Source: Melioribacteraceae bacterium
GTDB lineage: Bacteria; Bacteroidota; Ignavibacteria; Ignavibacteriales; Melioribacteraceae
NCBI GenBank assembly: GCA_026983955.1
Contig: JALSTB010000157.1
Span: 1 to 34,923 of the forward strand
Reading direction: 5' to 3'
DNA length: 34,923 nucleotides
Each line of letters starts with the position of its first letter. The first letter of the stretch is position 1. Below the pieces are notes generated by a model. It ran no database searches. It saw only the letters and a program-made list of their open reading frames with translations, and had not been told where the DNA came from. The position numbers and the translations under genes are program-made. This document shows positions 3,274 to 27,299 of the stretch, one piece after another.

Positions 3274-3291
3274 TGTAAAATGCACTTGATT

Positions 3292-4492: not shown

Positions 4493-4516
4493 TTTTTATA
4501 ATATCAAGGAGGCAAC

Positions 4517-6907: not shown

Positions 6908-6927
6908 GATTGGAAATGAAATTAATT

Positions 6928-6958
6928 AAAACGGGAAAAATATTTTCCCGTTTTTTTT
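6928..6958 (+). terminator. Intrinsic terminator inside the locus, after the triple-CBM9 gene
   Basis: AAAACGGGAAAA (6928-6939) pairs with TTTTCCCGTTTT (6943-6954) around a three-base loop, followed by a T run. I see no clear promoter or operator between here and the GH94 start at 7000, so partial read-through may feed the next operon. Confidence 0.8.
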
Positions 6959-6999
6959 ATTTAATTTGTATTAATCAACTTTAACTGGCATAAAAAATT

Positions 7000-11483: not shown

Positions 11484-13908
11484 GATAGCTTTAATTTTAA
11501 TTTTAAGTTATACGTTTAGTTCATTGTTGCCGGCACAAAGTTATATTTTTTTCGATGACAGTCAACAATCGGATTATTATGACCCGAGTTGGGGTTTTTT
11601 CAATAATCCTAGTTACTTGCAATTAATTAACCAGAATAAATTTCCTGTAAGTACAAAACACGTATTTTCTGGACTGAACAGTCTAAAAATGAGTTGGATC
11701 TCCCGTCCGGCGGGAGATTGGGCAATCGCTGTTGCTTCCGAAGGATGGATTTCACATGACCTGGCTCAAGTTGATAGTATTGTTTTTATGGCATATTCCG
11801 AAGACAATATTGATGCAGCGGATTACCCTAAAATTTTTGTCGAAGATGTTAACAATGTTAAAACTCCCGCTGTAAATCTGTCCGATTACAATGGCAACTT
11901 GCTTTCCGGTGTTTGGCGGAAATTTGTTGTTCCGCTTGATGTATTCAAGTCGAACCCGGGCAGTGCAGATCTTACCCGTATAAAAACCATCTTTTTCGGT
12001 CAAAATAATACTGATGAAATGAATCACATTCTTTATTTGGATAATATAAAAATGATAAATGCTTCCTCGGTTGATCTTAACCCACCGGAAACACCGGAAA
12101 ATTTTTCCGCTACCGCGTTTGATATGCACGTTGAACTTTCGTGGGATAAAAATACAGAGCCCGATTTGAATCAATATTATATTTATAAAATTGACGGAGG
12201 GCAGCAAAATATAATTGGAACCGTTACAAAAGATATGAATTACTATTCTCACTATTTGGGTTCATATAATTTAACAATAACATACAAAATATCTGCCGTC
12301 GATAGTAGTGGAAATGAATCCCCGTTAAGCGAACCTGTTACTGCAACAACACACAAAATGAACGATGCCGATTTGCTGACAATGGTTGAACGTTCCACTT
12401 TCAGATATTTTTGGGATTATGCACATCCGGAATCGGGCTTAATAAGGGAAGGTTATTTATCCCATCCCGGAAACATTACAACAACCGGTGGCACGGGGTT
12501 TGGTCTTATGGCTATCTTGGTTGGAATTGAGCGGGGTTTTATTTCCAGGCAAGAAGGTATCGACCGTTACATAAAAGTATTACAATTTTTAATTAATAAA
12601 ACTCAAAGATATCATGGAGCATTTTCTCATTGGATTGACGGTAAAACGGGAGAAACCATTCCGTTCTCTTCAAAAGACGATGGCGGCGATTTGGTTGAAA
12701 CGGCTTATTTAATGCAAGCACTTCTTACCGCTAGAAATTATTTTGATTCAACATCACCCGGCGAAACACAAATCAGAAGTATGATTAATCAACTTTGGGA
12801 AGGGGTTGAATGGGATTGGTACATGCGGTCTCCTTCAAGCAATTATCTATACTGGCATTGGTCTCCAAATTATAATTGGGATATGAATGTTAGAATTGTC
12901 GGTTGGAACGAAGCGCTGATTACATATATTTTAGCGATTGCTTCACCCACGCACCACGTGCCACTTAAGTTATATGAATCCGGATGGGCAGGTAATTCAA
13001 GTTATACAAACGGAAAAACATTTTACGGTTACCCGTTATTTGTTGGACAGGATTACGGCGGTCCCTTATTTTTTGCACATTATTCCTTTTTAGGTTTTGA
13101 TCCACGGGATAAAAAAGATAAATATGCCAATTATTTCATCAATAACAAGAACCATACTTTGATTAACAGGGCGTATTGTATAGATAACCCCAAAGGCTTT
13201 GCGGGATACAACGACTCCACGTGGGGATTGACTGCCGGATTGGATCCTGGAGGATATTCTGTTCATGCACCATGGAGTAGTGATAATGGTACTATTTCAC
13301 CAACGGCAGCCGTTTCCTCAATTGTTTACACGCCACTTGAATCAATGGCTGTTATTAGAAATTTATATAGAAATTACGGCGAACATTTATGGGGAGTATT
13401 CGGATTTAAAGATGCTTTTAATCCCTCGCAAAATTGGTATTCGGATAGTTATCTGGCAATTGATCAAGGTCCTGTTCTGATTATGATTGAAAATTACCGC
13501 AGTCAATTGCTATGGAATAATTTTATGGCCAATCCTGAAATTTCCGCTGCTCTTGATAGCATCGGTTTTGTGCCGGATGTAACTTCTATTAAAGATACAA
13601 TCAAAAATGATTTCCGGTTGAAATTAACGAATTATCCCAACCCGTTTGGCAATACTTCTAACGTATATAATCCAACTACAGTAATTCAATACAATATTGC
13701 TTCCGGTAATACGGAGAGGATACAACACACTGTGTTGAAAATATATGACGTGTTGGGGCGGGAAGTTTCCACATTGGTAAATGAATTCAAGCAGCCGGGT
13801 AAATACAGTGTGATATTTGACGGAAGAAATCTTAGTAGCGGAGTTTATTTTATTAAACTGCGAGTAGCTGAAAAAGAATTAATAAAGAAAATTGTTTACT
13901 TAAGATGA
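11476..13908 (+). CDS. T9SS-secreted GH144-type (PF10091) glucanase with FN3 domain
   Basis: The 810-residue protein starts at the ATG at 11476; the frame also opens one codon earlier at a TTG. Domains are a signal peptide (about 1-21), a CBM-like beta-sandwich (about 22-195, containing SRPAGDW), a fibronectin type III domain (about 203-293), a glucoamylase-like (alpha/alpha)6 barrel of the GH144 type (about 297-700) and a T9SS sorting domain (about 715-810). The barrel shows RYFWDYAHPESGL, VGWNEAL, TISPTAAVSSIVYTP and YLAIDQGP. Characterised GH144 members are endo-beta-1,2-glucanases, plus an exo-type sophorose-releasing enzyme, but the Pfam family is broader. I infer surface cleavage of the polymer. 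The sorting domain has an unusual insertion between NYPNPF and NPTTVI. The stop overlaps the next ATG. Confidence 0.85.
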   Translation: MNKIALILILSYTFSSLLPAQSYIFFDDSQQSDYYDPSWGFFNNPSYLQLINQNKFPVSTKHVFSGLNSLKMSWISRPAGDWAIAVASEGWISHDLAQVDSIVFMAYSEDNIDAADYPKIFVEDVNNVKTPAVNLSDYNGNLLSGVWRKFVVPLDVFKSNPGSADLTRIKTIFFGQNNTDEMNHILYLDNIKMINASSVDLNPPETPENFSATAFDMHVELSWDKNTEPDLNQYYIYKIDGGQQNIIGTVTKDMNYYSHYLGSYNLTITYKISAVDSSGNESPLSEPVTATTHKMNDADLLTMVERSTFRYFWDYAHPESGLIREGYLSHPGNITTTGGTGFGLMAILVGIERGFISRQEGIDRYIKVLQFLINKTQRYHGAFSHWIDGKTGETIPFSSKDDGGDLVETAYLMQALLTARNYFDSTSPGETQIRSMINQLWEGVEWDWYMRSPSSNYLYWHWSPNYNWDMNVRIVGWNEALITYILAIASPTHHVPLKLYESGWAGNSSYTNGKTFYGYPLFVGQDYGGPLFFAHYSFLGFDPRDKKDKYANYFINNKNHTLINRAYCIDNPKGFAGYNDSTWGLTAGLDPGGYSVHAPWSSDNGTISPTAAVSSIVYTPLESMAVIRNLYRNYGEHLWGVFGFKDAFNPSQNWYSDSYLAIDQGPVLIMIENYRSQLLWNNFMANPEISAALDSIGFVPDVTSIKDTIKNDFRLKLTNYPNPFGNTSNVYNPTTVIQYNIASGNTERIQHTVLKIYDVLGREVSTLVNEFKQPGKYSVIFDGRNLSSGVYFIKLRVAEKELIKKIVYLR

Positions 13909-15188
13909 AATTGCAGTGGTTCAAATATATAATTTTATTAGCTGTAATATTTCTTCTAAATTCATGTAATCATAATGAAACCGGTTTTAGGGTTGTCAGG
14001 TTTTGGGGACTTGGCGTTGAAGGTGAAGCTGTTGCTCAATTAATCCGGGAGTTCGAAACTGAAAACCCCGGTATCATTGTTAAAGTGCAAATGATTCCAT
14101 GGACAGCCGCCCAAGAAAAACTAATCTCTGCTTACGCAAGTGAAAATTTGCCCGATGTATTTCAACTGGGAAATACTTGGATTCCGCAATTCCAAGAGCT
14201 GGATGCAATAGCAACTTTGGATACTTTTATAAATACCTCCGGAAATATAGATTCAAGTAAATTTTTCAAAGGTATTTGGGATACAAATATAATTAATGGT
14301 AAAGTTTATGGAATTCCTTGGTACATAGATACCCGTGTTTTGTTTTATAGAACGGATGATCTATATAATGCAGGTTATTCCAGACCGCCGGTTAATTGGT
14401 CGGAACTACTGGATGTTTCACTTAAAATTAAAAAGAATAAACTTAAAAAAGATTTGTATCCTATATTTTTGCCATTCAACGATTGGTCGGTTATTGTAAT
14501 TTTTGCATTGCAAGCCGGAGCCAAGTTGCTTGTTAAAAATAATTCTTATGCAAATTTTTCTTCGGGGGAATTTAAAAAAGCGGTCGAATTTTTGATGCAA
14601 TTTTATGATAAGAATTTAGCGCCCAAAGGTTCTATGGAATTTAACAATATTTACCAGGCAATGGCAGAAGGATATATCTCAATGTTCATTTCCGGTCCGT
14701 GGAATATTAAAGAAATGAAAAAGTGGATGAAAGATGAGCTTGAAAACGAATGGATGACGGCTCCGTTACCGTCTCCGGATTCGAACGGAATCGGAATTTC
14801 ACTCGCCGGTGGGGCAAGTTTGGTTATGAATAAAATGTCAAATGACAAAGCGGCTGCTTGGAAATTAATCGAGTTTTTGTCGCGCCCAGCAACACAAATG
14901 AAATTTTACCAAATCGTAGACGATTTGCCTGCACGGCGTGAGGTATGGAATTATCCTGAAATTAAAAAAGACAAATATATGAAAGCATTTTTTACCCAGT
15001 TAAATCATGTTCAACCTCTTCCTAAAGTAACCGAATGGGAGCAAATTGCGTATTCGAAAATTCAACAATACATGGAATACATCGTTTATAAAAAAATGAG
15101 TATTGATGAAGCACTTAAAAAACTTGATGATGATGTAAATTCCATTTTGGAGAAAAGAAGATGGATGATTAAAAACAATTTACTATGA
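13905..15188 (+). CDS. ABC sugar transporter solute-binding lipoprotein
   Basis: The 427-residue protein has a lipoprotein signal with lipobox LLNSC (Cys21). The mature part fits family 1 extracellular solute-binding proteins: an early VVRFWGLG strand, the PWTAAQEKLISAYAS segment, LPDVFQLGNTW, and the conserved SGPWNIKEM plus LAGGASLVMNK near the binding cleft. Length is typical for sugar-binding proteins of the MalE/UgpB type. It starts in an ATGA overlap with the glucanase gene and is followed with overlap by the two permeases, so the three form one importer operon. The matching ATPase lies 11 kb further on. It probably captures the oligosaccharides released by the two GH144-type enzymes; this is inferred from position only. 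Confidence 0.92.
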   Translation: MKLQWFKYIILLAVIFLLNSCNHNETGFRVVRFWGLGVEGEAVAQLIREFETENPGIIVKVQMIPWTAAQEKLISAYASENLPDVFQLGNTWIPQFQELDAIATLDTFINTSGNIDSSKFFKGIWDTNIINGKVYGIPWYIDTRVLFYRTDDLYNAGYSRPPVNWSELLDVSLKIKKNKLKKDLYPIFLPFNDWSVIVIFALQAGAKLLVKNNSYANFSSGEFKKAVEFLMQFYDKNLAPKGSMEFNNIYQAMAEGYISMFISGPWNIKEMKKWMKDELENEWMTAPLPSPDSNGIGISLAGGASLVMNKMSNDKAAAWKLIEFLSRPATQMKFYQIVDDLPARREVWNYPEIKKDKYMKAFFTQLNHVQPLPKVTEWEQIAYSKIQQYMEYIVYKKMSIDEALKKLDDDVNSILEKRRWMIKNNLL

Positions 15189-16063
15189 ATGCTAAAAATC
15201 TAAAATATTATGCTTTTATGTTTCTTGCACCGGCTCTTATTTCAATTTTTGTATTCTTCTTCTTGCCGGTAATCGCATCGTTTTTGATAAGTTTTACGGA
15301 TTTCGATATTTACTCGTTAAATCATCCTGAAAGAATAAGGTTTACCGGGTTTCAGAACTATTCCAAATTACTGAACGATCCGCTGTTTTGGAAAGCCTTG
15401 GGAAATACATTCCTGTATGTAATCGTTGCAAGTCCGTTATCCATTTTAATTTCGTTAATAGCCGCCATATCGTTAAATTCCAAATTAGTTAAATTCAAAT
15501 CAGTGTTCAGACTCACCTTTTTTATGCCGGTAGTAACAACTTTGGTTGCCGTTGCAATCGTTTGGCGTTTTATCTACCACCCGAGATTCGGAATACTGAA
15601 TTATGCCCTCGGATTAGCGGGTATCGAACCGCTCGATTGGCTTGGAGATCCGCACTATGCACTTCCTGCAATTATAATTATGACAGTTTGGAAAAATTTT
15701 GGGTATAACATGATCATTTTTATTGCCGGTTTGCAAAACATACCGGACTATCTTTACGAAGCAGCAATATTGGACGGGGCAAATAAATTCCAACAGCTCA
15801 GAAATATTACCATACCTATGCTGGCTCCCACAACGTTGTTTATTAGTATAATAACAATGATAGGCTTCTTCCAAATATTTGCCGAACCGTATGTAATGAC
15901 TCAAGGGGGTCCGCTCAATAGCACACTAAGCATTGTTCTTTACATGTATCGTGAAGGATTCAGATGGTGGAACATGGGATATTCTGCAGCAATAGCTTTC
16001 GTACTGTTTTTTATAATTTTTGTATTTACACTTATACAATTTAAGATTAAAAGAGTAACATGA
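15185..16063 (+). CDS. ABC sugar transporter permease, MalF/UgpA type
   Basis: The 292-residue protein shows six hydrophobic segments and belongs to the binding-protein-dependent inner-membrane permeases. The first membrane segment contains MFLAPALISIFVFFFLPVI, and the family's ATPase-contact loop is seen as EAAILDGANKFQQLRNITIPML in the C-terminal half. The TQGGP motif near residue 240 is typical of sugar permeases of the MalF side. It overlaps the binding-protein stop and the next permease start (ATGA), which indicates coordinated synthesis of the importer subunits. Confidence 0.93.
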   Translation: MNAKNLKYYAFMFLAPALISIFVFFFLPVIASFLISFTDFDIYSLNHPERIRFTGFQNYSKLLNDPLFWKALGNTFLYVIVASPLSILISLIAAISLNSKLVKFKSVFRLTFFMPVVTTLVAVAIVWRFIYHPRFGILNYALGLAGIEPLDWLGDPHYALPAIIIMTVWKNFGYNMIIFIAGLQNIPDYLYEAAILDGANKFQQLRNITIPMLAPTTLFISIITMIGFFQIFAEPYVMTQGGPLNSTLSIVLYMYREGFRWWNMGYSAAIAFVLFFIIFVFTLIQFKIKRVT

Positions 16064-16881
16064 CGACAGGGATAAAAAAAATAATTTTAACCGCTATATT
16101 GCTGATTGCCGGAATCTTAACAATTACCCCCTTTATTTGGATGGTTTCGGCTTCTTTTATGTACGACGGGCATGCGAGTGTTTATCCACCGAGATTTTTC
16201 CCGGATGTTTTTACCTTAGTTCAATATGAAAAATTATTCTCTCATCTCAACATATTACGTAATTTTTTTAACAGTTTATTTCTTTCTTGTGTCATAACAA
16301 TAATCTCTTTATTTCTGAATTCAATGGCTGGTTATGCTTTTGCAAAATTCCGCTTTTCTAAAAAAGATAAAATATTTAAATTTTTACTAAGCTCAATGAT
16401 TATCCCCGCTCAAGTTACAATGTTGCCGTTATTTTTGCTATTAAAACAGCTTCATTTATTAAATACATATTTTGCAATTATAATTCCGGGACTTGCAAAC
16501 ATCTTTGGAATTTTTCTGACAAGGCAATATATATATTCAATCCCCGATAGTTTGATTGAAGCCGCGAGGATTGAAGGGGCAAGTGAATTTCTTATTTACA
16601 GAAAAATAATCTTGCCGTTGTCAGCACCAATATTAACCACTTTGGCAATTTTCACATTTTTAGGAGTGTGGAATGATTTTCTTTGGCCGCTTATTTCATT
16701 AACGGATAGTTCAATGTACACTTTGCCTGTTGCATTAGCTAACTTAATGGGCGAACATACAAAAGATCCGGAGCTAATGATGGCCGGCTCGGTTGTTACG
16801 GTTATTCCGGTAATAATTGTTTTTTTGGCTTTGCAGAAGTATTATATCAAAGGTATAATGATGAGTGGTATAAAAGGTTGA
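16060..16881 (+). CDS. ABC sugar transporter permease, MalG/UgpE type
   Basis: The 273-residue protein is the second inner-membrane permease of the importer. It has six hydrophobic segments, the N-terminal TPFIWMVSASF stretch typical of the MalG side, the loop EAARIEGASEFLIYRKIILPL contacting the ATPase, and the WNDFLWPL segment conserved in sugar permeases. Its start overlaps the stop of the first permease. The gene ends about 100 bases before the next operator and promoter, so transcription of the importer probably ends or weakens here, although I see no clear terminator. Confidence 0.93.
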   Translation: MTTGIKKIILTAILLIAGILTITPFIWMVSASFMYDGHASVYPPRFFPDVFTLVQYEKLFSHLNILRNFFNSLFLSCVITIISLFLNSMAGYAFAKFRFSKKDKIFKFLLSSMIIPAQVTMLPLFLLLKQLHLLNTYFAIIIPGLANIFGIFLTRQYIYSIPDSLIEAARIEGASEFLIYRKIILPLSAPILTTLAIFTFLGVWNDFLWPLISLTDSSMYTLPVALANLMGEHTKDPELMMAGSVVTVIPVIIVFLALQKYYIKGIMMSGIKG

Positions 16882-16949: not shown

Positions 16950-17003
16950 AATTTTGCAAAAATCTTTTTATTAACATTTATTTAAAAATTGGAGGTGCCC
17001 CCG

Positions 17004-18917
17004 ATGAGAAAGTTTTTACATTTATTTTTTGCTCTTCTTCTAATTTCCAGCATGTCATTTGCTCAATATGCTAAACGGCAAGATGCAATTTGGGCAAGAA
17101 TGACTAATGAATCAATGAATCTTGATGGTCTGCTGAATGAAAGTTCTTGGGCAATGGCAGAGTCTTTGCATATTGTTTACGGACAAAGTGCCGGCTTGCC
17201 TTCGAGCGGATGGACACAAGACCCCACGGGTGGACCTGGCGCAGTTACCGACCCGACTGATGCAATAGTGAAATTTTTGGTTACACCGGATAATTATCTT
17301 TACGTAGGTTTCGTTGTTGCCGATTCAAGCGTGGGAGGTAAAAACGATTGGGCCAATTGGGATGGTATCTTAATGTCTATTAAATCCAGAACTACCGAAG
17401 GATATCTTGTTAATTACGAGCCAACCACTCCCTTTGAATATTTTTACTCGTTTTGGTATGACAATGATTCATTCGGTCCGGGTGATCCGCCGGTTTTCCG
17501 GGGTATATATGGTTCCAATGATGTTTTCCCGGGCGACAGTGTTGCATTCAATGCAAAAATGTTTGTTAACGGAACTACCAACGACAGCCTTCCTGATAAC
17601 GGTTATTCCGTGGAGATGATGATTAATCTCGATTCCGTTGGTGTTGATGTGAATAATCCGGACGGGGACATTATCGAACTGAATTTTTCAATTTGGGATA
17701 AGGACGTTTTTCAAGGAAGACCGTTGGATTCTTATACAACCCGCACCTGGTGGCAAAGTCCTTGGAATTCAAACGCTTTCAACGTCGGAAGGGTTTACGT
17801 TAATCCCTCGGTTACAGTAAACAGCGGAAGTGTTCCTGAGATTCAACCCGATGTGATAATCCCGAATGCAGCTAATCATCCGGCACCAAATATCGACGGA
17901 ATACTCGACGAAGAAGTGTGGACGGGAGCCTATACTTTTCAGATGGCATGGGATCTTGGCAACGTTCGCCAAACTTATCCTGGAGTAGGTAAATTCAGAA
18001 GTGGTAGATTCCAACCTGAACGCGATTTGGATGGTGATGGTACCGTTGATCCAAAGGCTCAAGTGTTGGATCCCGTTACAGCTACTATAAAAGCATTCTT
18101 TAAGGATAATTTCCTTTATCTGGCTGCCGATGTCGATGATAAATTGGTTCAAGCTTCTAACGATTATGATTTCTATGACGGTGTTATTTTCAGATTGGGT
18201 GACAGGGGACAACTCAACGGTGATAATTATACTCTGTTTCAACATTTATCGGTTATGGTGAGCGACAATCCCGATACACCGTTTGTAGCATTGGATTATT
18301 TACCGAATATGTTGGATTCGAGCAATACCCAAGTGGCTTTGCATCTCAAGGGTGCAACAACGGTTAATAATTCCGCCGATGTTGACGAAGGTTATACAAT
18401 AGAAATGAAAGTCGATTTGTCTTATTTGGGATATCCTAACGACTTGGGCGACAACCTCCTTTTCTGGGGTGTCTTGTTGTTCGATGGCGATTCGTTCGAT
18501 GATCCTTTGCAAAATTACGGAACGCGTACTTGGTGGTTCGGTGAAAATTACAACTGGGCAACTGCCTGGTCGGTTATGGATCCTAATTATGTTCTTGTCA
18601 ATATCGATGATTTTAAAGGAAAGAAAATTCCCAATCATTTAAAGCTGTTGGGGAATTACCCGAATCCGTTCAATCCTTCCACAAAAATTAAGTTTGCAAC
18701 ACCCGTCAGAGGAAACGTTAAAATAAACGTTTACAACATGCTGGCGCAAAAAGTAATCACTTACGGTTTCGGTAATCTTAATGCAGGAATTCATGAGCGG
18801 AATTTCGATGCGAGTCAACTTTCATCGGGGGTATATTTTTACACTATACAATTGGAAAACGGACTAGACGGAAAAGTAATTTCAAGTAAAATCGGGAAAA
18901 TGGTACTTATAAAATAA
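17004..18917 (+). CDS. T9SS-secreted protein with two CBM9-like domains
   Basis: The 637-residue protein is best started at the ATG at 17004, which follows GGAGG (16991-16995) at eight bases and opens a clean signal peptide (about 1-21); a TTG five codons upstream is less likely. Two CBM9-like domains follow (about 25-275 and 295-540), with hallmarks LDGLLNESSW and IDGILDEEVW. A T9SS sorting domain (about 545-637) opens with NYPNPFNPSTKI and ends GKMVLIK. No catalytic domain is seen. The domains are clearly more diverged than the three of the 4517 protein. It is the gene most directly controlled by the LacI operator and is followed by a strong terminator. I infer a second surface glycan-binding protein. 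Confidence 0.86.
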   Translation: MRKFLHLFFALLLISSMSFAQYAKRQDAIWARMTNESMNLDGLLNESSWAMAESLHIVYGQSAGLPSSGWTQDPTGGPGAVTDPTDAIVKFLVTPDNYLYVGFVVADSSVGGKNDWANWDGILMSIKSRTTEGYLVNYEPTTPFEYFYSFWYDNDSFGPGDPPVFRGIYGSNDVFPGDSVAFNAKMFVNGTTNDSLPDNGYSVEMMINLDSVGVDVNNPDGDIIELNFSIWDKDVFQGRPLDSYTTRTWWQSPWNSNAFNVGRVYVNPSVTVNSGSVPEIQPDVIIPNAANHPAPNIDGILDEEVWTGAYTFQMAWDLGNVRQTYPGVGKFRSGRFQPERDLDGDGTVDPKAQVLDPVTATIKAFFKDNFLYLAADVDDKLVQASNDYDFYDGVIFRLGDRGQLNGDNYTLFQHLSVMVSDNPDTPFVALDYLPNMLDSSNTQVALHLKGATTVNNSADVDEGYTIEMKVDLSYLGYPNDLGDNLLFWGVLLFDGDSFDDPLQNYGTRTWWFGENYNWATAWSVMDPNYVLVNIDDFKGKKIPNHLKLLGNYPNPFNPSTKIKFATPVRGNVKINVYNMLAQKVITYGFGNLNAGIHERNFDASQLSSGVYFYTIQLENGLDGKVISSKIGKMVLIK

Positions 18918-18919
18918 CA

Positions 18920-18953
18920 GTTAGACCGGTTAATTTAACCGGTCTAACTTTTT
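18920..18953 (+). terminator. Intrinsic terminator between the second CBM9 gene and the TonB receptor
   Basis: GTTAGACCGGTTAA (18920-18933) is perfectly complementary to TTAACCGGTCTAAC (18935-18948), giving a long hairpin with a T run after it. The receptor starts at 18972, leaving only about 20 bases for a promoter, so read-through or a promoter inside the hairpin region must feed it. Confidence 0.85.
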
Positions 18954-18971: not shown

Positions 18972-21593
18972 ATGACTAAACCAGTATTCACACTCCTGTT
19001 TCTGCTTTTGAGTATGGAAGTTATCGCCCAAACAAGCGGTAAAATTGCCGGGCGTGTAGTTGACGAAAGCGGAAAACCGCTTATTGGAGCGAATGTTCTG
19101 ATTGAAGGAACCAACAGAGGAGCGGCTACGGATGAAGAAGGATATTATTCGATAATTAATGTTCGCGCGGGAACCTACACTTTGCAATTCGGATTTGTGG
19201 GCTATCAACGAAAAACCGTTAAGAATGTTAAGGTTTATGCCGACCGGACTACAAAAGTGGATGTGCAACTTAAACCCAAAGCAGTTCAATCGGAAGAAGT
19301 GATTGTAGAAGCCCAAAAGCCTTTGGTTGAAGTAAATCTTACCAGCTCGGTTGCAACAATAACAGACGAGGATATTGATAAACTTCCGGTTCAAAACCTT
19401 ACTGAAATAGTTAACCTGCAAGCCGGTGTAGTCGACGGACATTTTAGAGGGGGGCGTTTGGGTGAAGTACAATATCAAGTTGACGGTGTCACGGTTAATA
19501 ATCCGTATGATAATTCTTCCACATTAAAACTGGATAGGTCTGTTCTTCAAGAAGTGCAAGTTATCAGCGGTACATTCGATGCTAAATACGGGCAAGCTAT
19601 GTCCGGTGTTGTAAATGCCGTTCTAAAATCCGGTTCCGATAAATTTGAAATCAGAGGTGAATTATACGGCGGCGATTTTTATACTTCCGATTCGAAACGT
19701 TATCCGCACAATAACTCTTTTAATCCGGTAACAATACAAAATTATCAGTTGACGTTAAGCGGACCGTTGCCAATTAATTCCACAACATTTTTGGTAAACG
19801 GCAGAAGATATTTAAATTACGGATATTTATTTGGTGTAAGAAGATTTTTGCCAACGGACAAATCGGATTTTGAAAAAAAAATCTATAATCCAACCGGCGA
19901 CAATAAACTTGTTCCAATGCAAATAAATAAAGAATGGAGCGGACAAGCCAAAATAACGAACCGGTCAATTCATAATGTTCAACTTAGTTATCAGGCGATA
20001 TTTAATAGGCTTGAAACTTCACGCTATGATCATGCTTTTAGATTGAATCCGGAAGGGATTACAACCCAGAAAACTTTATCTTTAACACATGGTTTCGATT
20101 TTATTCATACCATTTCGGACAAGATGTTTTACAAAATAAGTGCCCGCCAAAATTATTTCGACTACAGTGATTATAAATATAAAGATCTGTTCGATAAACG
20201 TTACACCTTGGCCGGTCAACCGAAAGGAGACCCCAATTATGAAGATGGAGCTATTATTCAAGGTGTAAGTTTGGGCAGATTCATTCAAAAAACCAATTCG
20301 GGAATCGTTAAAGCCCAATTTACTTGGCAAGTTGACAGAATAAATTTTGTAGAAAGCGGCACGGAATTCGAATATTCCCAAATTTCCTTTGGCAGTCCTG
20401 GCTTTTTGGACTTTGTAACGGAAAACGGTATTCAAAAATTAAAGCCCAGACTGGGAAGTAAACCAGGTGATCCGAAAGTTGAAACATATTTTCCGCACAG
20501 ACTTGCCGCATATTTGCAAGATCGAATTGAATGGGGTGATATTGTGGTGCGGGCGGGAGTCCGGTTCCAGCTTTTCGATGCAAATGCAAAAGTTCCAAGT
20601 GATTATCAAAATCCAGCTAATGCAATAAGCAATGCACCGAAATCCAAGCTGGTGAGAACCACCGTAAAAACTTCAATTGCACCACGCTTGGGGTTCAGTT
20701 TTCCTCTTACCGATCATTCTTCAATTTATTTTTCATACGGTCACTTTTATCAAATGCCAAACTTGAATTCATTATATAACAACTCTAATTATTTAATACT
20801 AAAAGATTTGCAAGCGGGCGGAATAAGTTACGGTGTGATGGGTAATCCCGATTCAAAGCCACAAAAAACAATTCAGTATGAAGTTGGATTGAAGCAAGCT
20901 GTTTCCACCTTCTTTGGTGTCGAAATTACATTTTTTTACAAAGATATAAGAGATTTACTAGGAACGGAGTTCGTTTCAACTTACACTGCTGCAGAGTATG
21001 CCCGGTTAACAAATGTCGATTTCGGTAGCGCGTACGGACTAACAATTGCACTAGACCAAAGAAGGATAGGTTCGTTCAGCAGTTCCATCGATTATACGTT
21101 ACAATTTGCGAATGGAAATTCCAGCGATCCCAATGAAACGGCAAACAGAGCTGCGGCAGGTAAAGATCCGAGGCCGAGGGACATTCCTTTTAATTGGGAT
21201 CAGCGGCATACTTTAAACGCTACATTAATCTACTCCGAGCCGGGAAATTATTCATTAAGCACAATAATCAAATTCGGAAGCGGGCAACCATACACACCTG
21301 CAATCGGAACAGGCTTCAACGCGGATTTGGAAACAAATTCCGGAAGAAAAAAAAGTTTTATTTTAATGGATTTAAGAGCAGAAAAATCATTTAAAATTAA
21401 TAATATAAAACTTAACTTATTCCTTAGAGTATTTAATTTGTTGAACACCAGTTTTGTAAACGGGTTTGTATTTTCCACCACGGGAAGTCCGGATTATTCA
21501 CAATTTCCCGTGTTAGACAGGGTTCAATTGGCAAATCCGGCAAGGTTTTATCCACCCAGAAGAATAGAATTTGGAGTCACATTTAATTTATGA
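18972..21593 (+). CDS. TonB-dependent outer-membrane receptor (carboxypeptidase-like N-domain type)
   Basis: The 873-residue protein has a signal peptide (about 1-19), a carboxypeptidase-regulatory-like domain (about 22-110, starting KIAGRVVDESGKPLIGANV), a plug domain (about 115-225, with VDGVTVNNPYD and YGQAMSGVVNAVLKSGS) and a beta-barrel ending in GVTFNL with the terminal aromatic/hydrophobic pattern of outer-membrane barrels. It belongs to the SusC-like side of the TonB receptor family by its N-domain but is shorter than typical SusC (about 1000 residues), and no SusD gene follows. Its stop overlaps the start of the next gene (ATGA), suggesting that the two products work together. I infer import of oligosaccharides through the outer membrane. 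Confidence 0.92.
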   Translation: MTKPVFTLLFLLLSMEVIAQTSGKIAGRVVDESGKPLIGANVLIEGTNRGAATDEEGYYSIINVRAGTYTLQFGFVGYQRKTVKNVKVYADRTTKVDVQLKPKAVQSEEVIVEAQKPLVEVNLTSSVATITDEDIDKLPVQNLTEIVNLQAGVVDGHFRGGRLGEVQYQVDGVTVNNPYDNSSTLKLDRSVLQEVQVISGTFDAKYGQAMSGVVNAVLKSGSDKFEIRGELYGGDFYTSDSKRYPHNNSFNPVTIQNYQLTLSGPLPINSTTFLVNGRRYLNYGYLFGVRRFLPTDKSDFEKKIYNPTGDNKLVPMQINKEWSGQAKITNRSIHNVQLSYQAIFNRLETSRYDHAFRLNPEGITTQKTLSLTHGFDFIHTISDKMFYKISARQNYFDYSDYKYKDLFDKRYTLAGQPKGDPNYEDGAIIQGVSLGRFIQKTNSGIVKAQFTWQVDRINFVESGTEFEYSQISFGSPGFLDFVTENGIQKLKPRLGSKPGDPKVETYFPHRLAAYLQDRIEWGDIVVRAGVRFQLFDANAKVPSDYQNPANAISNAPKSKLVRTTVKTSIAPRLGFSFPLTDHSSIYFSYGHFYQMPNLNSLYNNSNYLILKDLQAGGISYGVMGNPDSKPQKTIQYEVGLKQAVSTFFGVEITFFYKDIRDLLGTEFVSTYTAAEYARLTNVDFGSAYGLTIALDQRRIGSFSSSIDYTLQFANGNSSDPNETANRAAAGKDPRPRDIPFNWDQRHTLNATLIYSEPGNYSLSTIIKFGSGQPYTPAIGTGFNADLETNSGRKKSFILMDLRAEKSFKINNIKLNLFLRVFNLLNTSFVNGFVFSTTGSPDYSQFPVLDRVQLANPARFYPPRRIEFGVTFNL

Positions 21594-24500
21594 GAAAAGT
21601 AAAAATTGTTCTAATTATAATTTTAATAGTTTTGTTTTATATTAACAGCAAAGCTCAAGAATACCTGCCGGTGGTACCGGATTCGTTAAGAGGAGCAATT
21701 GATCAAGAAAGGGAAGGGCAACACGATGCAAACAACATAAGAACCAAATTTTTCAATTTTGGAATGGTGGGTGATTATCCGCGGGATCCTATCAATGTTG
21801 ATGTTACTGTGTTTCATTCCATGGAATGGCCGAAAGGTTCGGGTGAAAACTATAGTGATGGTCATACCCCTTTTGTTCTTGCCAAAGTCAAACAAAACAA
21901 CGGGACTGATGCCTATATTATGGAAACCGGATACCGCGAAAGACAAGCCAGAAGCCCTTTCCATCCCGAGAGAGTAATGAGATTTGAACCCCGGCCGGGA
22001 TATTTCCAACCCGATCCGGCAATAAATAAAGGCAGATCCGTTGCAATAAGCAATGACCCGCGTACTTGGCCCGGGCAATGGATTGATAAATTGAACGATC
22101 CGGATGATCCTGGATGGAGCGGTTTCTGGAACGGCTACTTCGGGAAAGCACCCGGGGCTGACCAAGAAAGCTTTGTCGTTTATGATGATAACTTTTACGA
22201 TGCTTGGAATTTTTATCCGGATGACAGAGACCACACACGGCACGGACTCGGATTGAAAATAGAACAAAGAGGTTTCCAGTGGGCTAACCCTCAAGCTGGT
22301 AATGTGATCTTCTGGCATTACGATATAACAAACGAAGGAACTACAACTTACGATAATAATATAATTTTCGGCTTGTATATGGATTCCGGTGTAGGCGGTT
22401 CCGGAATAGGTGTTGACGGAATTCCAGAATCGGATGACGATAATGCTTTTTTTGATAAATCAATCGGACTTAATATTGTTTATACTTGGGATAAGTTCGG
22501 TCACGGCATGAGAGGTCCTACCGGATATTTGGGCTATTCGTATATGGAAACCCCGGGCAATCCGTTCAATGGTATCGACGATGATATGAACGGCGTTACT
22601 GATGAAAAACGGGACGGCGGTCCGGGAATCAAAATTGAAGGTGTGGACAACATTTTGGCTTATGTACGTCAACATTACGATATTGATAAGTTTGAGGAAT
22701 TTTTTCAAGGTTCAATAGAAAACCGCCCGGCAGTTCAATCCGGTGTCTGGTGGACGGGCGACGAAGATATGGATTGGGTGGCGGAATTTCATGATACCGG
22801 GGCAGACGGTGTTTTTGCTACAAAAGATAATCCACCCGATGAAGGTGAAAAAGACGGTATTCCTACTTTAGGAGAACCTAATTTTGATAAAACCGATATC
22901 GATGAATCCGATCAAATAGGTTTAACCGGTTTTAAAATGAATAGAATTAAAGCCGGTGCAGGCTCACCCTCCACCGAGGTTGATAACATTGTGTTTTTTA
23001 TGGATGAAAATAAATGGCCTCAAAGATTATTCGATATGTTTACCTCGGATGACCCTTTCGATGCGCCGTTGGTTTTGAATTACAATATAGGATTTTTGTT
23101 TGCTTCCGGTCCTTTTATTTTACAACCGGCCAAAAAAGAAAGATTCAGTCTGGCGCAAGGTTTCGGAGCAAACTTAAGGGAATTGGAAAACACAGCCCGC
23201 GTTGTTACTCAAATTTATAAGGCGAATTATCAATTTGCCGTACCTCCGCCATTACCCACTGTTCATGCAACGGCGGGTGATGGCTATGTGATTTTAACCT
23301 GGGATGATTTGGCTGAAAGGGCTTTCGATCCTATTACTCTTAAAAATGATTTTGAAGGTTATAAAATTTACCGCAGTACCGATCCTTCTTTTCTTGACCC
23401 GAAAATAATTTATACGGCAACAGGTTCCCACACGTTTGGGAACGGAAAACCATTGGCTCAATTCGATTTGGTCGACGGTATTTACGGATTCTCCAATACA
23501 ACAGTTGAAGGAATAAGCTATTTTTTGGGGAACGAAACCGGGATAAAACATACTTTTACGGATTCCACTGTTACAAACGGACAACTTTATTATTACGCCG
23601 TTACCGCTTATGATACGGGTTCCGATTCATTGAAAATTTTTCCATCCGAAAACTCTATTTCAGTCAGTCAAACATTAAGGGGCGGAATAATTTTACCGGG
23701 AAATGTGGTGCAAGTGCGTCCCAATCCTCCGGTTACCGGTTTCCAACAGGCAAAAGCAATAAATGTTCAACACGTAAAAGGGAATGGTGTTGGCAATATA
23801 AAATTGGAAGTAAAGAATTCCGATATAGTTCCGGATGGACATAATTTTAGAATAACATTTGTAACTTCTGACGACAGTGTAAGAGCTGAAAAATATAAAT
23901 TGATTGATGAAACTTCGGGTGATACTTTAATTGAATTCGGAACGGATTTAGACGGTCTGGGCGTTGGACCCGTTGGAGAAGGGATTCTACCAGTTATTTC
24001 AACTCCTCACGAAGTAACTATTGATTCGAATAAAACGGGATTTACTGAAAATTCACAAACCAATATTAAACTGAGTGTAAGATATGTAAACTCTCAAAAT
24101 ACTTTGCCCCCCAATTTAAAAAGACCCGGATACCCCGAAAATATTGAAATCCGGTTCAGTAATTCAATTGTCGATACTTCTTTACCTTATAGTATATTTC
24201 CTGCAGTTCCTGTAAAGTTTAAAGTTTATGCAATAACAAGTAACGGCGATATGGAGATGAAATTCCGTTTTCAAGACAGGGATGGCGATAACACCTTGAG
24301 CGATCCGAAAGATGTTTTGGAAATTGTAACTTATGCACGAACCGGGCCCAATAAGCCGAAAGTAACATGGAGTATTAAAATCGATACCACAGGACAGTCG
24401 CAGTCGGGAGATATTTTGTTACCAGGTGAGGGGGATGTATTCCTTTTAGCGGTTAATAAACCTTTCGGAGAGGAAGATGAATTTGTATTTTCCACAATTG

Positions 24501-24850
24501 GTCAACGTGTCGATAACAATTTATCAGCGAATAGCGATAAGCACCCTTATGTTGTGCCCAATCCATATGTTGGTGCAGCTAGTTTTGAACCGCAACGCTT
24601 TGCTGTTTCCGGCAGGGGTGAAAGGAGAATGGAATTCAGAAATATACCTGTGAATGCAACTATAAGGATTTATACCGTCAATGGGGAACTTGTAAAAACT
24701 TTGCAGCACGAAGGAAACATTACAGAAGGATATGTTGCATGGAATTTAAGAACAAAAGATAACCTGGAAGTTGCGCCTGGTCTCTATATTTTTCATGTTG
24801 AAGCTCCGGGAAATAAACCTTTTGTCGGAAAGTTCGCAATTATAAAATAA
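21590..24850 (+). CDS. Large T9SS-exported protein coupled to the TonB receptor
   Basis: The 1086-residue protein has a signal peptide (about 1-22) and a long region without a domain I can name (about 23-545), rich in Asp, Gly and Trp. Within it are acidic stretches such as DGIPESDDDN and GIDDDMNGVTDE that resemble calcium-binding loops. A fibronectin type III-like segment (about 550-710) and further beta-sandwich regions follow, then a T9SS-like tail (about 990-1086) with VVPNPYVGA, IRIYTVNGELVKTL and GLYIFHVEAPG. Similar receptor-coupled proteins are common in Ignavibacteria, but I know of no assigned function. The four-base overlap with the TonB receptor and the following PorV-like gene suggest a surface partner of the receptor, perhaps replacing SusD. 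This role is inference. Confidence 0.75.
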   Translation: MRKVKIVLIIILIVLFYINSKAQEYLPVVPDSLRGAIDQEREGQHDANNIRTKFFNFGMVGDYPRDPINVDVTVFHSMEWPKGSGENYSDGHTPFVLAKVKQNNGTDAYIMETGYRERQARSPFHPERVMRFEPRPGYFQPDPAINKGRSVAISNDPRTWPGQWIDKLNDPDDPGWSGFWNGYFGKAPGADQESFVVYDDNFYDAWNFYPDDRDHTRHGLGLKIEQRGFQWANPQAGNVIFWHYDITNEGTTTYDNNIIFGLYMDSGVGGSGIGVDGIPESDDDNAFFDKSIGLNIVYTWDKFGHGMRGPTGYLGYSYMETPGNPFNGIDDDMNGVTDEKRDGGPGIKIEGVDNILAYVRQHYDIDKFEEFFQGSIENRPAVQSGVWWTGDEDMDWVAEFHDTGADGVFATKDNPPDEGEKDGIPTLGEPNFDKTDIDESDQIGLTGFKMNRIKAGAGSPSTEVDNIVFFMDENKWPQRLFDMFTSDDPFDAPLVLNYNIGFLFASGPFILQPAKKERFSLAQGFGANLRELENTARVVTQIYKANYQFAVPPPLPTVHATAGDGYVILTWDDLAERAFDPITLKNDFEGYKIYRSTDPSFLDPKIIYTATGSHTFGNGKPLAQFDLVDGIYGFSNTTVEGISYFLGNETGIKHTFTDSTVTNGQLYYYAVTAYDTGSDSLKIFPSENSISVSQTLRGGIILPGNVVQVRPNPPVTGFQQAKAINVQHVKGNGVGNIKLEVKNSDIVPDGHNFRITFVTSDDSVRAEKYKLIDETSGDTLIEFGTDLDGLGVGPVGEGILPVISTPHEVTIDSNKTGFTENSQTNIKLSVRYVNSQNTLPPNLKRPGYPENIEIRFSNSIVDTSLPYSIFPAVPVKFKVYAITSNGDMEMKFRFQDRDGDNTLSDPKDVLEIVTYARTGPNKPKVTWSIKIDTTGQSQSGDILLPGEGDVFLLAVNKPFGEEDEFVFSTIGQRVDNNLSANSDKHPYVVPNPYVGAASFEPQRFAVSGRGERRMEFRNIPVNATIRIYTVNGELVKTLQHEGNITEGYVAWNLRTKDNLEVAPGLYIFHVEAPGNKPFVGKFAIIK

Positions 24851-24862
24851 TGAAATACTATT

Positions 24863-25876
24863 ATGAAAACTATTATTCGATATTGTCTTTTACTTCTTTT
24901 ACTCCTTTTTACGTCAATATATTCACAAAGCAAGGTTGCCACCACAATCGGACAAGTATTAAAAATTACTCCAAGTGCAAGGGCAAACGGAATAGGAAAC
25001 GCCAGCACTTCATTAACGGGAGAACCTTCTGCTGCGTTTTATAATCCGGCAATTTTAGGAAAAGTTAAAGATTTTAATATTCAATTAACTCATAATGAAT
25101 GGTTGGCGGACATTAATTATAATTATGTTATTGCTACATACTCAATTGAATCTTTAGGTACTTTTGCATTCCAGGTTATTTCATTAAATTCGGGTGAAAT
25201 TGATGTGAGAACCGTTGAACAACCATTGGGAACAGGTGAGCGATATTCGGTAAACAATATTGCATTGGGAATCGGGTACGGTGTGAATTTAACCGACAGA
25301 GTGTCTGTGGGATTTCAACTAAACTATTTGCAGGAAACCATCTGGCATAGCAGTCTTGCCACGTACGGAGTGAATTTCGGAGTTTTGTACCGGTTGGCAG
25401 ACAACAGTTTAACATTGGGCGCCAGTATTTCCAATTTTGGACCGAGAGCAAAGTATTCGGGAAGGGATTTATTTATCGATCACGATTTCGACCCCGCCAA
25501 ACATGGCGATAATGACGCAATTCCTTCCGAAATAAGAACCGACGAATTTCCGTTACCAACTTTATTCAGAGTCGGTTTATCATATCCGCTGCAAGTTTCG
25601 GAAAAAAATAAATTGATATTTTCTGCCGACGCAATCCATCCCAATGATAACAATGAAAGCATTAACATTGGGTTCGAATGGAACTATGATAATTTACTGA
25701 TGTTAAGAGGAGGTTACAGGGATTTGTTTTTACAAGATTCGGAAGGCGGACTTGTTTTTGGCGCCGGAATTAATATAAATTTCCTTAGTGATTATCTGTT
25801 AAGTATCGATTATGCTTGGGCGGATTACGGCCGGTTAAAGCAGGTTAACAGATTTACTCTGGGACTTAAATTCTGA
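24863..25876 (+). CDS. PorV/PorQ-family outer-membrane beta-barrel protein
   Basis: The 337-residue protein has a signal peptide (about 1-21) and then the family's typical start, with SARANGIGNASTSLTGEPSAAFYNPA, followed by alternating beta strands that form a FadL-like barrel and a terminal Phe (GLKF). In T9SS bacteria PorV shuttles cargo proteins to the attachment complex, and PorQ-type relatives have related roles. Many Ignavibacteria carry several such paralogues next to T9SS cargo genes. Here it follows the large T9SS protein by 12 bases, so it may be dedicated to that protein or to the other cargos of the locus. It could instead be a general T9SS component placed here. Confidence 0.85.
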   Translation: MKTIIRYCLLLLLLLFTSIYSQSKVATTIGQVLKITPSARANGIGNASTSLTGEPSAAFYNPAILGKVKDFNIQLTHNEWLADINYNYVIATYSIESLGTFAFQVISLNSGEIDVRTVEQPLGTGERYSVNNIALGIGYGVNLTDRVSVGFQLNYLQETIWHSSLATYGVNFGVLYRLADNSLTLGASISNFGPRAKYSGRDLFIDHDFDPAKHGDNDAIPSEIRTDEFPLPTLFRVGLSYPLQVSEKNKLIFSADAIHPNDNNESINIGFEWNYDNLLMLRGGYRDLFLQDSEGGLVFGAGININFLSDYLLSIDYAWADYGRLKQVNRFTLGLKF

Positions 25877-25904: not shown

Positions 25905-27299
25905 ATGAAATTAATAATATCGAATATTTTACTAATAATATTATTTGTTGCCTGCGCCGATCAAAGCTCGATAAAAGTTAGTAATGTAAAGTTATCTTCA
26001 GGAAAAATTCCGGTTGAACAAAAGAAATTATTGGATTCATTACAATATAAATCTTTCCTCTACTTCATAAAAGAATGTGATATTAACAAAGGCTTGGTAA
26101 AAGACAGATCTACCCCGGAATCCCCTGCATCAATTGCGGCTATGGGTTTTGCTATTCCGGTTTGGGCGGTAGGTGTTGAGAACGGGTGGATTACAAGAAA
26201 AGAAGCTGCCGGAAGAACCATGAATATGCTTATGTTTTTAAAAAATGCCGAGCAGAGTACAAACAAGGATGCAACCGGTTATAAAGGGTTTTATTATCAC
26301 TTTTTGGATTTTAATACGGGGAAAAGAACCTGGCAAAGCGAACTTTCAACTATCGATACTGCATGGCTTTTGGCCGGAATCAGATTTGCATATAACTATT
26401 TTTCGGGTGATAATGTAATTGAAGTTCAAATACGCCGTTTAGCGGAATTGTTAACTGAGAGAGTGGATTGGAATTGGGTCACATCCGGCTATCATAATGA
26501 ATTCGAAGGTTCAATTTCGCTCGGGTGGAAACCGGAAAGTGGGTTCGATAAAATCGGATGGGTAGGCTACAACGAAGCGCTATTCCTCTATATTATTGCC
26601 GCCGGATCCGATTATGGTAATGCCAGAAACGCATACTCTAAATGGTTAAGTACATATAATTGGAAGGAACCATTTACAGGCTTGGCGCATGTTGTTTTCC
26701 CTCCGTTATTCGGACATCAGTACTCCCACATTTTTATCGACTTTAAAAATCTTCAAGATGAATACATGAAAAAAAAAGGCATAGATTATTTTGAAAATTC
26801 AAAGCGTGCGGTTTTCACACAATGGAAATATGCAGTCTTAAATCCTCTCGGCTGGAAAGGATATGATTCGTTAACTTGGGGTTTAACCGCATGCGACGGA
26901 CCCGGTCCGGCTTTTAATTTTAACGGTAAAAATTTTTATTGGTATACCGCAAGAGGAACTAGCGGACCCGGTTTGATAATGAACGACGACGGTACGATTG
27001 CACCCACTGCTGCGGTTTCGTCAATCGTTTTTGCTCCGGATCTTGTGATTAAAACTATTTTTAATCTTTATTCAAAATACGGGGAAAAAGGATTATGGGG
27101 TAAATACGGTTTTGTGGATTCTTTTAACCCGACACTTAATTGGTATGATTCCGATTATCTGGCAATTGATCAAGCTCCTATGATTTTAATGATTCAAAAT
27201 TATAAAAACGGATTTGTGTGGAAATATGTAATGCAAGATTCATATATCCGCAAAGGATTAAATATATTGGGATTTGAAAGAGCAAAGGAAAATAACTGA
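25905..27299 (+). CDS. GH144-type (PF10091) glucanase lipoprotein
   Basis: The 464-residue protein has a lipoprotein signal (lipobox FVAC, Cys17) and then essentially only the glucoamylase-like (alpha/alpha)6 barrel (about 45-460). It shares with the 11476 enzyme VGYNEAL, TIAPTAAVSSIVFAP, YDSLTWGLTA and YLAIDQAP, so both belong to one family, but it lacks the CBM-like, FN3 and sorting domains. The size matches single-domain GH144 enzymes. As a lipoprotein it is placed in the periplasm or on the outer-membrane surface, probably shortening oligosaccharides taken in by the TonB receptor. One enzyme may be endo-acting and the other exo-acting; the sequence alone does not tell which. The stop is directly followed by the ATPase start. 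Confidence 0.87.
   Translation: MKLIISNILLIILFVACADQSSIKVSNVKLSSGKIPVEQKKLLDSLQYKSFLYFIKECDINKGLVKDRSTPESPASIAAMGFAIPVWAVGVENGWITRKEAAGRTMNMLMFLKNAEQSTNKDATGYKGFYYHFLDFNTGKRTWQSELSTIDTAWLLAGIRFAYNYFSGDNVIEVQIRRLAELLTERVDWNWVTSGYHNEFEGSISLGWKPESGFDKIGWVGYNEALFLYIIAAGSDYGNARNAYSKWLSTYNWKEPFTGLAHVVFPPLFGHQYSHIFIDFKNLQDEYMKKKGIDYFENSKRAVFTQWKYAVLNPLGWKGYDSLTWGLTACDGPGPAFNFNGKNFYWYTARGTSGPGLIMNDDGTIAPTAAVSSIVFAPDLVIKTIFNLYSKYGEKGLWGKYGFVDSFNPTLNWYDSDYLAIDQAPMILMIQNYKNGFVWKYVMQDSYIRKGLNILGFERAKENN

What the first reader, a model, noticed from the sequence alone, without database searches (positions are those of the whole stretch)
18972..25876. TonB receptor, large T9SS protein and PorV-like protein as a possible substitute for SusCD
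No SusD is present. The receptor is translationally coupled (ATGA) to a 1086-residue T9SS protein with no named domain in its first half, and a PorV-like gene follows. The trio could be a receptor with a covalently anchored or T9SS-delivered lid or capture protein and its own export shuttle. This would differ mechanistically from the lipoprotein SusD lid.
Basis: inference. Interest (0 to 1): 0.75.

Follow-up and report, generated by a model that had tools for sequence, protein, structure and literature searches.

The report
SusD-free glycan uptake trio
Next to an outer-membrane sugar receptor, this bacterium encodes a large exported surface protein of an undescribed family and a small PorV-like barrel; the three genes stay together across many phyla and are swapped between glycan-degradation loci, so they probably do the job that the SusC-SusD pair does in gut Bacteroides, with different parts.

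Summary
The trio is real and strikingly conserved. The large protein family (no Pfam/NCBIfam model, no PDB homologue) occurs in 55 of 58 related genomes. In 60 sampled loci, 59 have exactly receptor - large protein - PorV-like in order on one strand; the other has the same three genes reordered. A named-genome scan finds the same order in 63 of 78 loci (most exceptions are contig edges or ORF-calling) across Calditrichota, Eisenbacteria, Krumholzibacteriota, Neomarinimicrobiota and others. The window genome carries eight trios and one true SusCD pair. In a phylum sample, genomes rich in SusD lack the family. Trio subfamilies track substrate enzymes: the window's orthologues go with GH144 (beta-1,2-glucan; 44/54 versus 4/84 other trios), others with GH16+GH3, GH53, GH13 or ABC sugar importers. 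AlphaFold (pLDDT 90) shows the 'domain-less' first half is a beta-supersandwich, the non-catalytic domain of GH15/GH94 enzymes, followed by beta-sandwiches and a T9SS C-terminal domain. Co-divergence links this domain to the receptor's extracellular loops and plug, and the PorV-like barrel to the receptor's membrane strands. Best reading: a TonB receptor with a T9SS-delivered glycan-capture protein; works like SusCD but is not a member. Complex formation, lid motion and anchoring are untested.

The parts
18972..21593 (+). TonB-dependent receptor: signal peptide, N-terminal extension (CarbopepD_reg_2, nt 19044-19307), plug (nt 19335-19610), canonical 22-stranded barrel (nt 19647-21590); not SusC by TIGR04056
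   Evidence: TIGR04056 90 bits vs cut-off 368; AF2 pLDDT 89.4; BtuB Z 37, Cir, FhuA-like barrel
21590..24850 (+). Large T9SS-exported partner (1086 aa), signal peptide without lipobox; undescribed family
   Evidence: no Pfam; no PDB homologue; AF2 pLDDT 89.9
21686..23236 (+). Residues 33-549 of the large protein: beta-supersandwich domain (fold of the non-catalytic N-terminal domains of GH15/GH94/GH116 enzymes), with conserved Asp-rich (calcium-loop-like) motifs near residues 330-340 and 402-441
   Evidence: 9ju0 Z 20.6, 261 aa, 3.0 A; 1ug9 Z 19.0; 6gh3 Z 18.2; 5h3z Z 15.5; invariant columns
23237..24514 (+). Residues 550-975 of the large protein: Fn3-like and further beta-sandwich domains
   Evidence: Foldseek to fibronectin type III chains, low TM; exact borders are inference
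24542..24847 (+). Residues 985-1086 of the large protein: T9SS C-terminal sorting domain of a distinct class (VVPNPYVGAASFE...GRGERR...)
   Evidence: (PorZ CTD 5m11 Z 10.3, 90 aa, 26% id), (class separates from the ordinary PNPFNPTT-type CTDs)
24863..25876 (+). PorV/PorQ-family outer-membrane barrel
   Evidence: NF033709 199.6 bits, cut-off 90; F. johnsoniae PorV 6h3i E 4e-4
16989..18917 (+). T9SS protein with CBM9-like region; directly upstream of the receptor in 12/12 close orthologous loci; probable accessory surface binder
   Evidence: 50/54 vs 1/84; partial co-divergence with the large protein 0.51
25905..27299 (+). PF10091 (GH144-type) lipoprotein directly after the PorV-like gene; substrate-marker enzyme of the module
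   Evidence: PF10091; 12/12 orthologous loci
3494..16881 (+). Rest of the glycan locus: LacI regulator, CBM9/T9SS protein, GH94, GH2, GH144-type T9SS enzyme, ABC importer binding protein and two permeases (MalK-type ATPase at 27300-28388)

Best explanation
The trio is a modular outer-membrane glycan-uptake unit that takes the place of SusCD in these bacteria. The TonB receptor imports oligosaccharides (here very probably beta-1,2-gluco-oligosaccharides made by the GH144 enzymes, then taken up by the ABC importer). The large protein is exported through the T9SS by its C-terminal domain and sits on the outside of the receptor, its N-terminal beta-supersandwich capturing glycan and delivering it to, or capping, the receptor mouth. 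The PorV-like barrel is a dedicated carrier and/or membrane anchor: it binds the large protein's CTD as PorV does and docks beside the receptor barrel, holding the cap in place without a lipid anchor. Shown: conservation of the trio, linkage to glycan enzymes, predicted folds, T9SS CTD, complementarity to SusD. Inferred: physical complex, glycan binding, lid/capture role, PorV-like protein as anchor. Sub-confidences: glycan-uptake module replacing SusCD 0.85; large protein is a receptor-contacting capture/lid protein 0.6; PorV-like protein is its cognate carrier/anchor 0.5.
For: Order kept in 59/60 loci of 57 genomes and 63/78 named loci in many FCB phyla, with 7 further loci cut by contig ends. 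Eight trios in the window's genome, whose receptors form one clade apart from its other TonB receptors (98/97 support); the shorter 690-790 aa middle proteins of some trios are homologues of the large one (hhalign 100%, E 2e-50). Substrate swapping: window orthologues with GH144 in 44/54 loci vs 4/84 for other trios (p 1e-21); other subfamilies with GH16+GH3, GH53, GH13/GH99 or directly with binding protein-permease-permease. A published I. album beta-1,2-glucan cluster has the same enzyme types and was assigned an unnamed TonB transporter (PMC8861115). SusD is rare where the trio is common: 15/56 relatives with 1-3 SusD vs 55/58 with the large protein; in 118 phylum genomes all 18 with >=10 SusD lack it, and in the window's class 19/29 have it vs 4/29 with SusD. 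Supersandwich fold Z up to 20.6 with no (alpha/alpha)6 catalytic barrel behind it. Co-divergence over 113 trios: supersandwich with receptor extracellular loops (partial 0.33, half-sample range 0.23-0.42) and plug (0.32) but not membrane strands (0.07); PorV-like with membrane strands (0.29). CTD class distinct: 133/147 such CTDs precede a PorV-like gene vs 3/206 ordinary CTDs. T9SS core present: SprA and PorU-PorV.
Against: No complex model or experiment. Co-divergence of large protein and PorV-like protein, given the receptor, is nil overall (-0.04; -0.07 with controls), only 0.12 for the CTD (range touches 0), so a cognate carrier role is not shown. Shared substrate selection or shared composition of barrel proteins could produce the co-divergence without contact. 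In F. johnsoniae all type A CTDs use the single PorV (PMC12618676). Conserved order may reflect operon inheritance. The fold match says nothing on binding: no ligand site was identified. The sample for the CTD contingency was fetched with the large family, so it is partly circular.
Confidence: 0.6

Rival explanations
1. The PorV-like barrel is a structural subunit of the receptor complex rather than a T9SS carrier, in the way that the FadL-like BamG sits at the rear of BamA and forms the pillar that holds the extracellular BamH; the general PorV (beside PorU in this genome) exports the large protein.
For: Receptor and PorV-like protein co-diverge beyond everything else (partial 0.65 given large protein; 0.66 with controls; membrane strands 0.29). 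PorV-like protein also matches the BamG model weakly. BamG precedent PMC12611786. A receptor-PorV-like pair without a large protein exists at C152.
Against: The CTD of the large protein is of a class tied to PorV-like neighbours; barrels share composition, which can inflate the receptor/PorV-like correlation.
Confidence: 0.3
2. The large protein is an accessory surface glycan-binding protein (a functional SusE/SusF), co-expressed but not part of a closed receptor complex.
For: Co-divergence of large protein with the neighbouring CBM9 T9SS protein (partial 0.51); glycan-enzyme-type fold.
Against: It is one-to-one with the receptor in essentially every locus and conserved across substrates, unlike accessory binders; co-divergence with receptor loops and plug.
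Confidence: 0.25
3. The supersandwich is catalytic (a new polysaccharide lyase, hydrolase or epimerase on the surface).
For: Some mutarotase-like supersandwich proteins and PL26 relatives appear in the match list (3k25 Z 12.8, 5xq3 Z 12.9); several invariant acidic residues.
Against: The best matches are to the non-catalytic N-terminal domains of GH15/GH94; the conserved acids cluster in Asp-rich, calcium-loop-like motifs and are invariant across subfamilies with different substrates.
Confidence: 0.08
4. Ordinary operon neighbours: a TonB receptor next to unrelated T9SS cargo with a general PorV paralogue, no joint function.
For: Only indirect evidence of interaction exists.
Against: Order kept across about ten phyla and in eight paralogous copies of one genome.
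Confidence: 0.04

Closest known systems
SusCD glycan importers (Bacteroidota PULs)
   Same: NTE-bearing TonB receptor one-to-one with a surface protein; locus with glycoside hydrolases, regulator and further uptake; many paralogous copies per genome each tied to a substrate.
   Different: Receptor far below the SusC model cut-off (90 vs 368 bits) and closest in fold to BtuB-type barrels; partner is no lipoprotein, has a supersandwich instead of the helical SusD fold, and carries a T9SS sorting domain; a third gene, PorV-like, is always present.
BtuB-BtuG vitamin B12 receptors (PMC10404256)
   Same: Shows that a TonB receptor can be capped by a non-SusD fold (beta-propeller) with a pedal-bin mechanism.
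   Different: BtuG is a lipoprotein, ligand is B12, no PorV-like partner.
Type B T9SS cargo with cognate PorP/SprF (PMC12618676, PMC9143113)
   Same: T9SS surface protein genetically paired with its own outer-membrane carrier that also anchors it.
   Different: Here the CTD is a type A-like variant and the neighbour belongs to the PorV family; F. johnsoniae type A cargo share one PorV.
BamG-BamH of the Bacteroidota BAM complex (PMC12611786)
   Same: FadL-like barrel beside a larger barrel, carrying an extracellular protein with a carbohydrate-binding fold.
   Different: BamH is a lipoprotein; function is OMP assembly, not uptake.
Ignavibacterium album beta-1,2-glucan cluster (PMC8861115)
   Same: GH144 pair, GH94, sophoro-oligosaccharide ABC importer; authors suggested an unnamed TonB transporter.
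   Different: The passages read here say nothing of the large protein or a PorV-like gene; its gene order was not compared here.

Membership tests
SusC (TIGR04056) | score above the curated cut-off | tested here: not met
   90.1 bits vs 368.25; the genome's true SusC scores 557.8
SusC (TIGR04056) | N-terminal extension (CarbopepD_reg_2) before the plug | tested here: met
   PF13715 83.1 bits, residues 25-112
SusD | PF07980/PF14322 sequence family | tested here: not met
   no Pfam hit in the large protein
SusD | lipoprotein signal peptide (lipobox Cys) | tested here: not met
   N-terminus MRKVKIVLIIILIVLFYINSKAQEY has no Cys (sequence)
SusD | helical (TPR-based) fold | tested here: not met
   AF2 model almost all beta, supersandwich plus beta-sandwiches
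SusD | forms the lid of its receptor | not testable with these tools
   no complex prediction offered; indirect support
TonB-dependent receptor | plug plus 22-stranded barrel | tested here: met
T9SS type A cargo | signal peptide and C-terminal sorting domain | tested here: met
   PorZ CTD structural match Z 10.3 over 90 aa; sequence match to the C-terminal end of NF052228; no hit to PF18962/TIGR04183 itself, so a divergent class
T9SS type A cargo | host has the T9SS (SprA/Sov, PorU, PorV) | tested here: met
T9SS type A cargo | PorU cleavage and LPS attachment | not testable with these tools
   needs experiment
PorV/PorQ family | NF033709 above cut-off | tested here: met
   199.6 bits vs 90
PorV (orthologue, NF033710) | equivalog cut-off 250 bits | tested here: not met
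   68.7 bits
PorV/PorQ family | binds a CTD and carries cargo from SprA | not testable with these tools
   co-divergence with the CTD weak, 0.12
Supersandwich-domain glycoside hydrolases (GH15/GH94) | catalytic (alpha/alpha)6 barrel after the supersandwich | tested here: not met
   residues 550-1086 are beta-sandwich domains and a CTD in the model

The most novel reading that the evidence does not exclude
A third class of capped TonB importer, besides SusCD and BtuBG: the cap is a supersandwich protein delivered by the T9SS and held by a dedicated PorV-family barrel, used across much of the FCB superphylum as its main glycan importer, with SusCD predominating mainly in Bacteroidia.
Probability: 0.45. 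Interest if true: 0.9.

Novelty: new variant of a known kind. Interest (0 to 1): 0.75.

Why it matters
Published work notes that susCD genes are scarcely detected in the carbohydrate gene clusters of Ignavibacteriales and absent from those of Kapabacteria (PMC10576277), leaving open how these and many uncultured FCB phyla bring glycans across the outer membrane. The trio gives a testable answer, a marker for finding such loci and their substrates in genomes where SusCD-based PUL callers see nothing, and a case where the T9SS would build a nutrient importer rather than only release enzymes or adhesins. The large protein family has no Pfam or NCBIfam model although hundreds of copies were found.

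Tried and rejected
Chance neighbours: rejected. Sequence search of the large protein against PDB: nothing significant. Whole-protein co-divergence as proof of a large protein/PorV-like pairing: gave none, reported as such. Foldseek E-value ranking of the large protein was dominated by multi-domain Ig/Fn3 chains with TM about 0.1 or less and was used only for the Fn3-like hint; VIA alignment gave the clear result. SusC entries are absent from the 50 best VIA rows of the receptor, which is inconclusive. Considered and left out: reading receptor and large protein as one chain for a fold (frames do not permit it and only pLDDT would be returned). A simple promoter scan found no more sites than shuffles. 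Literature searches for PorV with TonB receptors in Ignavibacteria, SusD absence in Gemmatimonadota, and PorV/TonB gene clusters gave nothing on this trio; only CC-licensed PMC papers were searched. The first ORF-overlap rule in high-GC loci hid real genes under antisense ORFs; corrected.
Full report
OBSERVATION. The receptor (18972-21593) has an N-terminal CarbopepD_reg_2 domain, plug and TonB barrel. Its stop overlaps the start of the 1086-residue large protein as ATGA, and a PorV/PorQ-family gene follows after 12 bases. The large protein has no Pfam family and no PDB homologue by profile search. The large protein starts with an ordinary signal peptide without a cysteine.

SURROUNDINGS. The locus is one long + strand gene run from a LacI regulator (3494) to a MalK-type ATPase (28388): CBM9/T9SS protein, GH94, GH2, a PF10091 enzyme with T9SS tail, an ABC importer (binding protein, two permeases), a CBM9-like T9SS protein, the trio, a PF10091 lipoprotein, MalK. 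PF10091 corresponds to GH144 endo-beta-1,2-glucanases (own knowledge; a cluster with two GH144, GH94 and a sophoro-oligosaccharide ABC importer is published from Ignavibacterium album, PMC8861115, where an unnamed TonB-dependent transporter was suggested).

CONSERVATION. In the same genome the large protein has paralogues in the same setting: eight receptor - large - PorV-like trios on contigs C157, C18, C176, C99 (three), C72 and C6, plus a receptor - PorV-like duo on C152. The shorter (690-790 aa) middle proteins are homologous over their length to the long ones (hhalign probability 100, E 2e-50). The receptors of these loci are one clade against the genome's other TonB receptors (support 98/97; 0 of 500 label shuffles as clustered). 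Across 58 related genomes 55 have the large family. Of 60 regions taken one or more per genome, 59 have receptor - large - PorV-like in strict order; the last has receptor - PorV-like - large.

SUBSTRATE LINK. The window's orthologues (54 loci) have a GH144-type gene in 44 cases, against 4 of 84 other trio loci (Fisher p 1e-21); in all 12 closest orthologues in relatives the CBM9-like protein is directly before and GH144 directly after the trio. Other trio subfamilies sit beside GH16 (L122) and GH3 (L114), GH53 galactanase (L149) or GH13 and GH99-like enzymes (L152), or a binding protein and two permeases. So the trio behaves as an exchangeable uptake module of glycan loci.

RELATION TO SusCD. 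The window genome lacks PF14322 but has one true SusCD pair (contig C79; SusC 557.8 bits, SusD 47.8 bits). The trio receptor itself is far below the SusC cut-off (90 vs 368). SusD (PF07980) occurs in 15 of 56 relatives in 1-3 copies. In an even sample of 118 phylum genomes the large family is in 48 and PF14322 in 57; both in 22; every one of the 18 genomes with ten or more PF14322 matches lacks the large family, and in the window's class 19 of 29 have it against 4 of 29 with PF14322 (counted by hand from the tables). This agrees with a report that susCD is scarcely detected in carbohydrate gene clusters of Ignavibacteriales (PMC10576277).

STRUCTURE. AlphaFold2 on the large protein with 65 homologues gives mean pLDDT 89.9. 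Residues 33-549 match the beta-supersandwich that precedes the catalytic barrel in GH15 and GH94 enzymes: dextran dextrinase 9ju0 Z 20.6 (261 residues, 3.0 A), glucodextranase 1ug9 Z 19.0, bacterial glucoamylase 1lf6 Z 18.6, laminaribiose phosphorylase 6gh3 Z 18.2, 1,2-beta-oligoglucan phosphorylase 5h3z Z 15.5. No catalytic barrel follows; the rest is beta-sandwich (Fn3-like first) and a CTD like that of PorZ (5m11 Z 10.3, 90 residues, 26% identity). The receptor model (pLDDT 89.4) is a canonical 22-stranded barrel nearest BtuB, Cir and FhuA-type receptors.

T9SS LINK. The genome has SprA and PorU directly followed by its best-scoring PorV-family gene. CTDs of the large family form their own class (VVPNPY..AA.WE..GRGERRI.F..LP..CTIRIYT) unlike the ordinary YPNPFNPTT type of neighbouring cargo: 133 of 147 have a PorV-like gene next, against 3 of 206 ordinary ones, one of which is PorU-PorV itself (loci were fetched with the large family, so partly circular). 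In the T9SS the cargo CTD binds PorV's extracellular loops and leaves SprA with PorV (PMC10994853), and type B cargo use and stay bound to cognate PorP/SprF barrels (PMC12618676, PMC9143113). A dedicated PorV-like carrier for a type A-like CTD would extend this; it is inference here.

WHO TOUCHES WHOM. Over 113 distinct trios, pairwise distances correlate 0.94 (receptor-large), 0.92 (receptor-PorV-like), 0.86 (large-PorV-like); given the third, 0.74, 0.65 and -0.04. By region: supersandwich with receptor extracellular loops 0.33 (half-sample 0.23-0.42) and plug 0.32, but membrane strands 0.07; PorV-like with membrane strands 0.29; CTD with PorV-like 0.12 (-0.01 to 0.24). Within the window's subfamily with neighbours as controls: receptor-PorV-like 0.66, large-CBM9 protein 0.51, receptor-large 0.24, large-PorV-like -0.07. 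This is what a cap over the receptor and a barrel beside it would give, but shared substrate selection and shared composition of membrane proteins could give it too; it does not single out the large protein as the PorV-like protein's partner. The BamA-BamG-BamH arrangement (PMC12611786) is a precedent for a FadL-like side barrel carrying an extracellular protein, and BtuB-BtuG (PMC10404256) for a non-SusD cap on a TonB receptor.

VERDICT. The best explanation is a SusCD-like glycan-uptake unit with a T9SS-delivered supersandwich capture/lid protein and a PorV-family carrier or anchor. It works like SusCD (and BtuBG) but is not a member: SusD sequence family, lipobox and fold are all not met. 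Complex formation, glycan binding and anchoring remain to be tested.

Noticed in passing
window 142-3285 (-): 1047-aa protein with an F5/8 type C domain and a weak oligosaccharide-amylase match; relatives occur in 20 of 54 beta-1,2-glucan trio loci and 0 of 84 other trio loci: a candidate unnamed beta-1,2-glucan enzyme.
   Followed up: partly
window 18919-18949: Perfect 14-bp inverted repeat AGTTAGACCGGTTAA-T-TTAACCGGTCTAACT-like stem followed by T-rich sequence between the CBM9-like gene and the receptor; a terminator or attenuator inside the gene run. A similar one lies at 6928-6954.
   Followed up: no
L056 (G000 contig C152) 2871-6783: Receptor - PorV-like pair without a large protein in between, followed by a 362-aa protein with a lipoprotein-like start.
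   Followed up: no
L249 (G000 contig C79) 1985-6201: The genome's single true SusC-SusD pair.
   Followed up: yes
window 21590-24850, large protein residues about 328-340 and 402-446: Asp-rich, calcium-loop-like motifs (DGIDNDxDGxxDE; GEGDGxPTxGEPNFDxTDxDESDQIGLT) strongly conserved across all subfamilies.
   Followed up: no
L134 and L135: A trio subfamily followed by a GlpD-type FAD oxidoreductase instead of glycan enzymes: possibly a non-glycan or glycerol-containing substrate.
   Followed up: no
L120, L123-L126, L128-L133, L147: A trio subfamily directly followed by a ~510-aa gene of unknown function (weak SurA_N match in L123) and a binding protein-permease-permease importer.
   Followed up: partly
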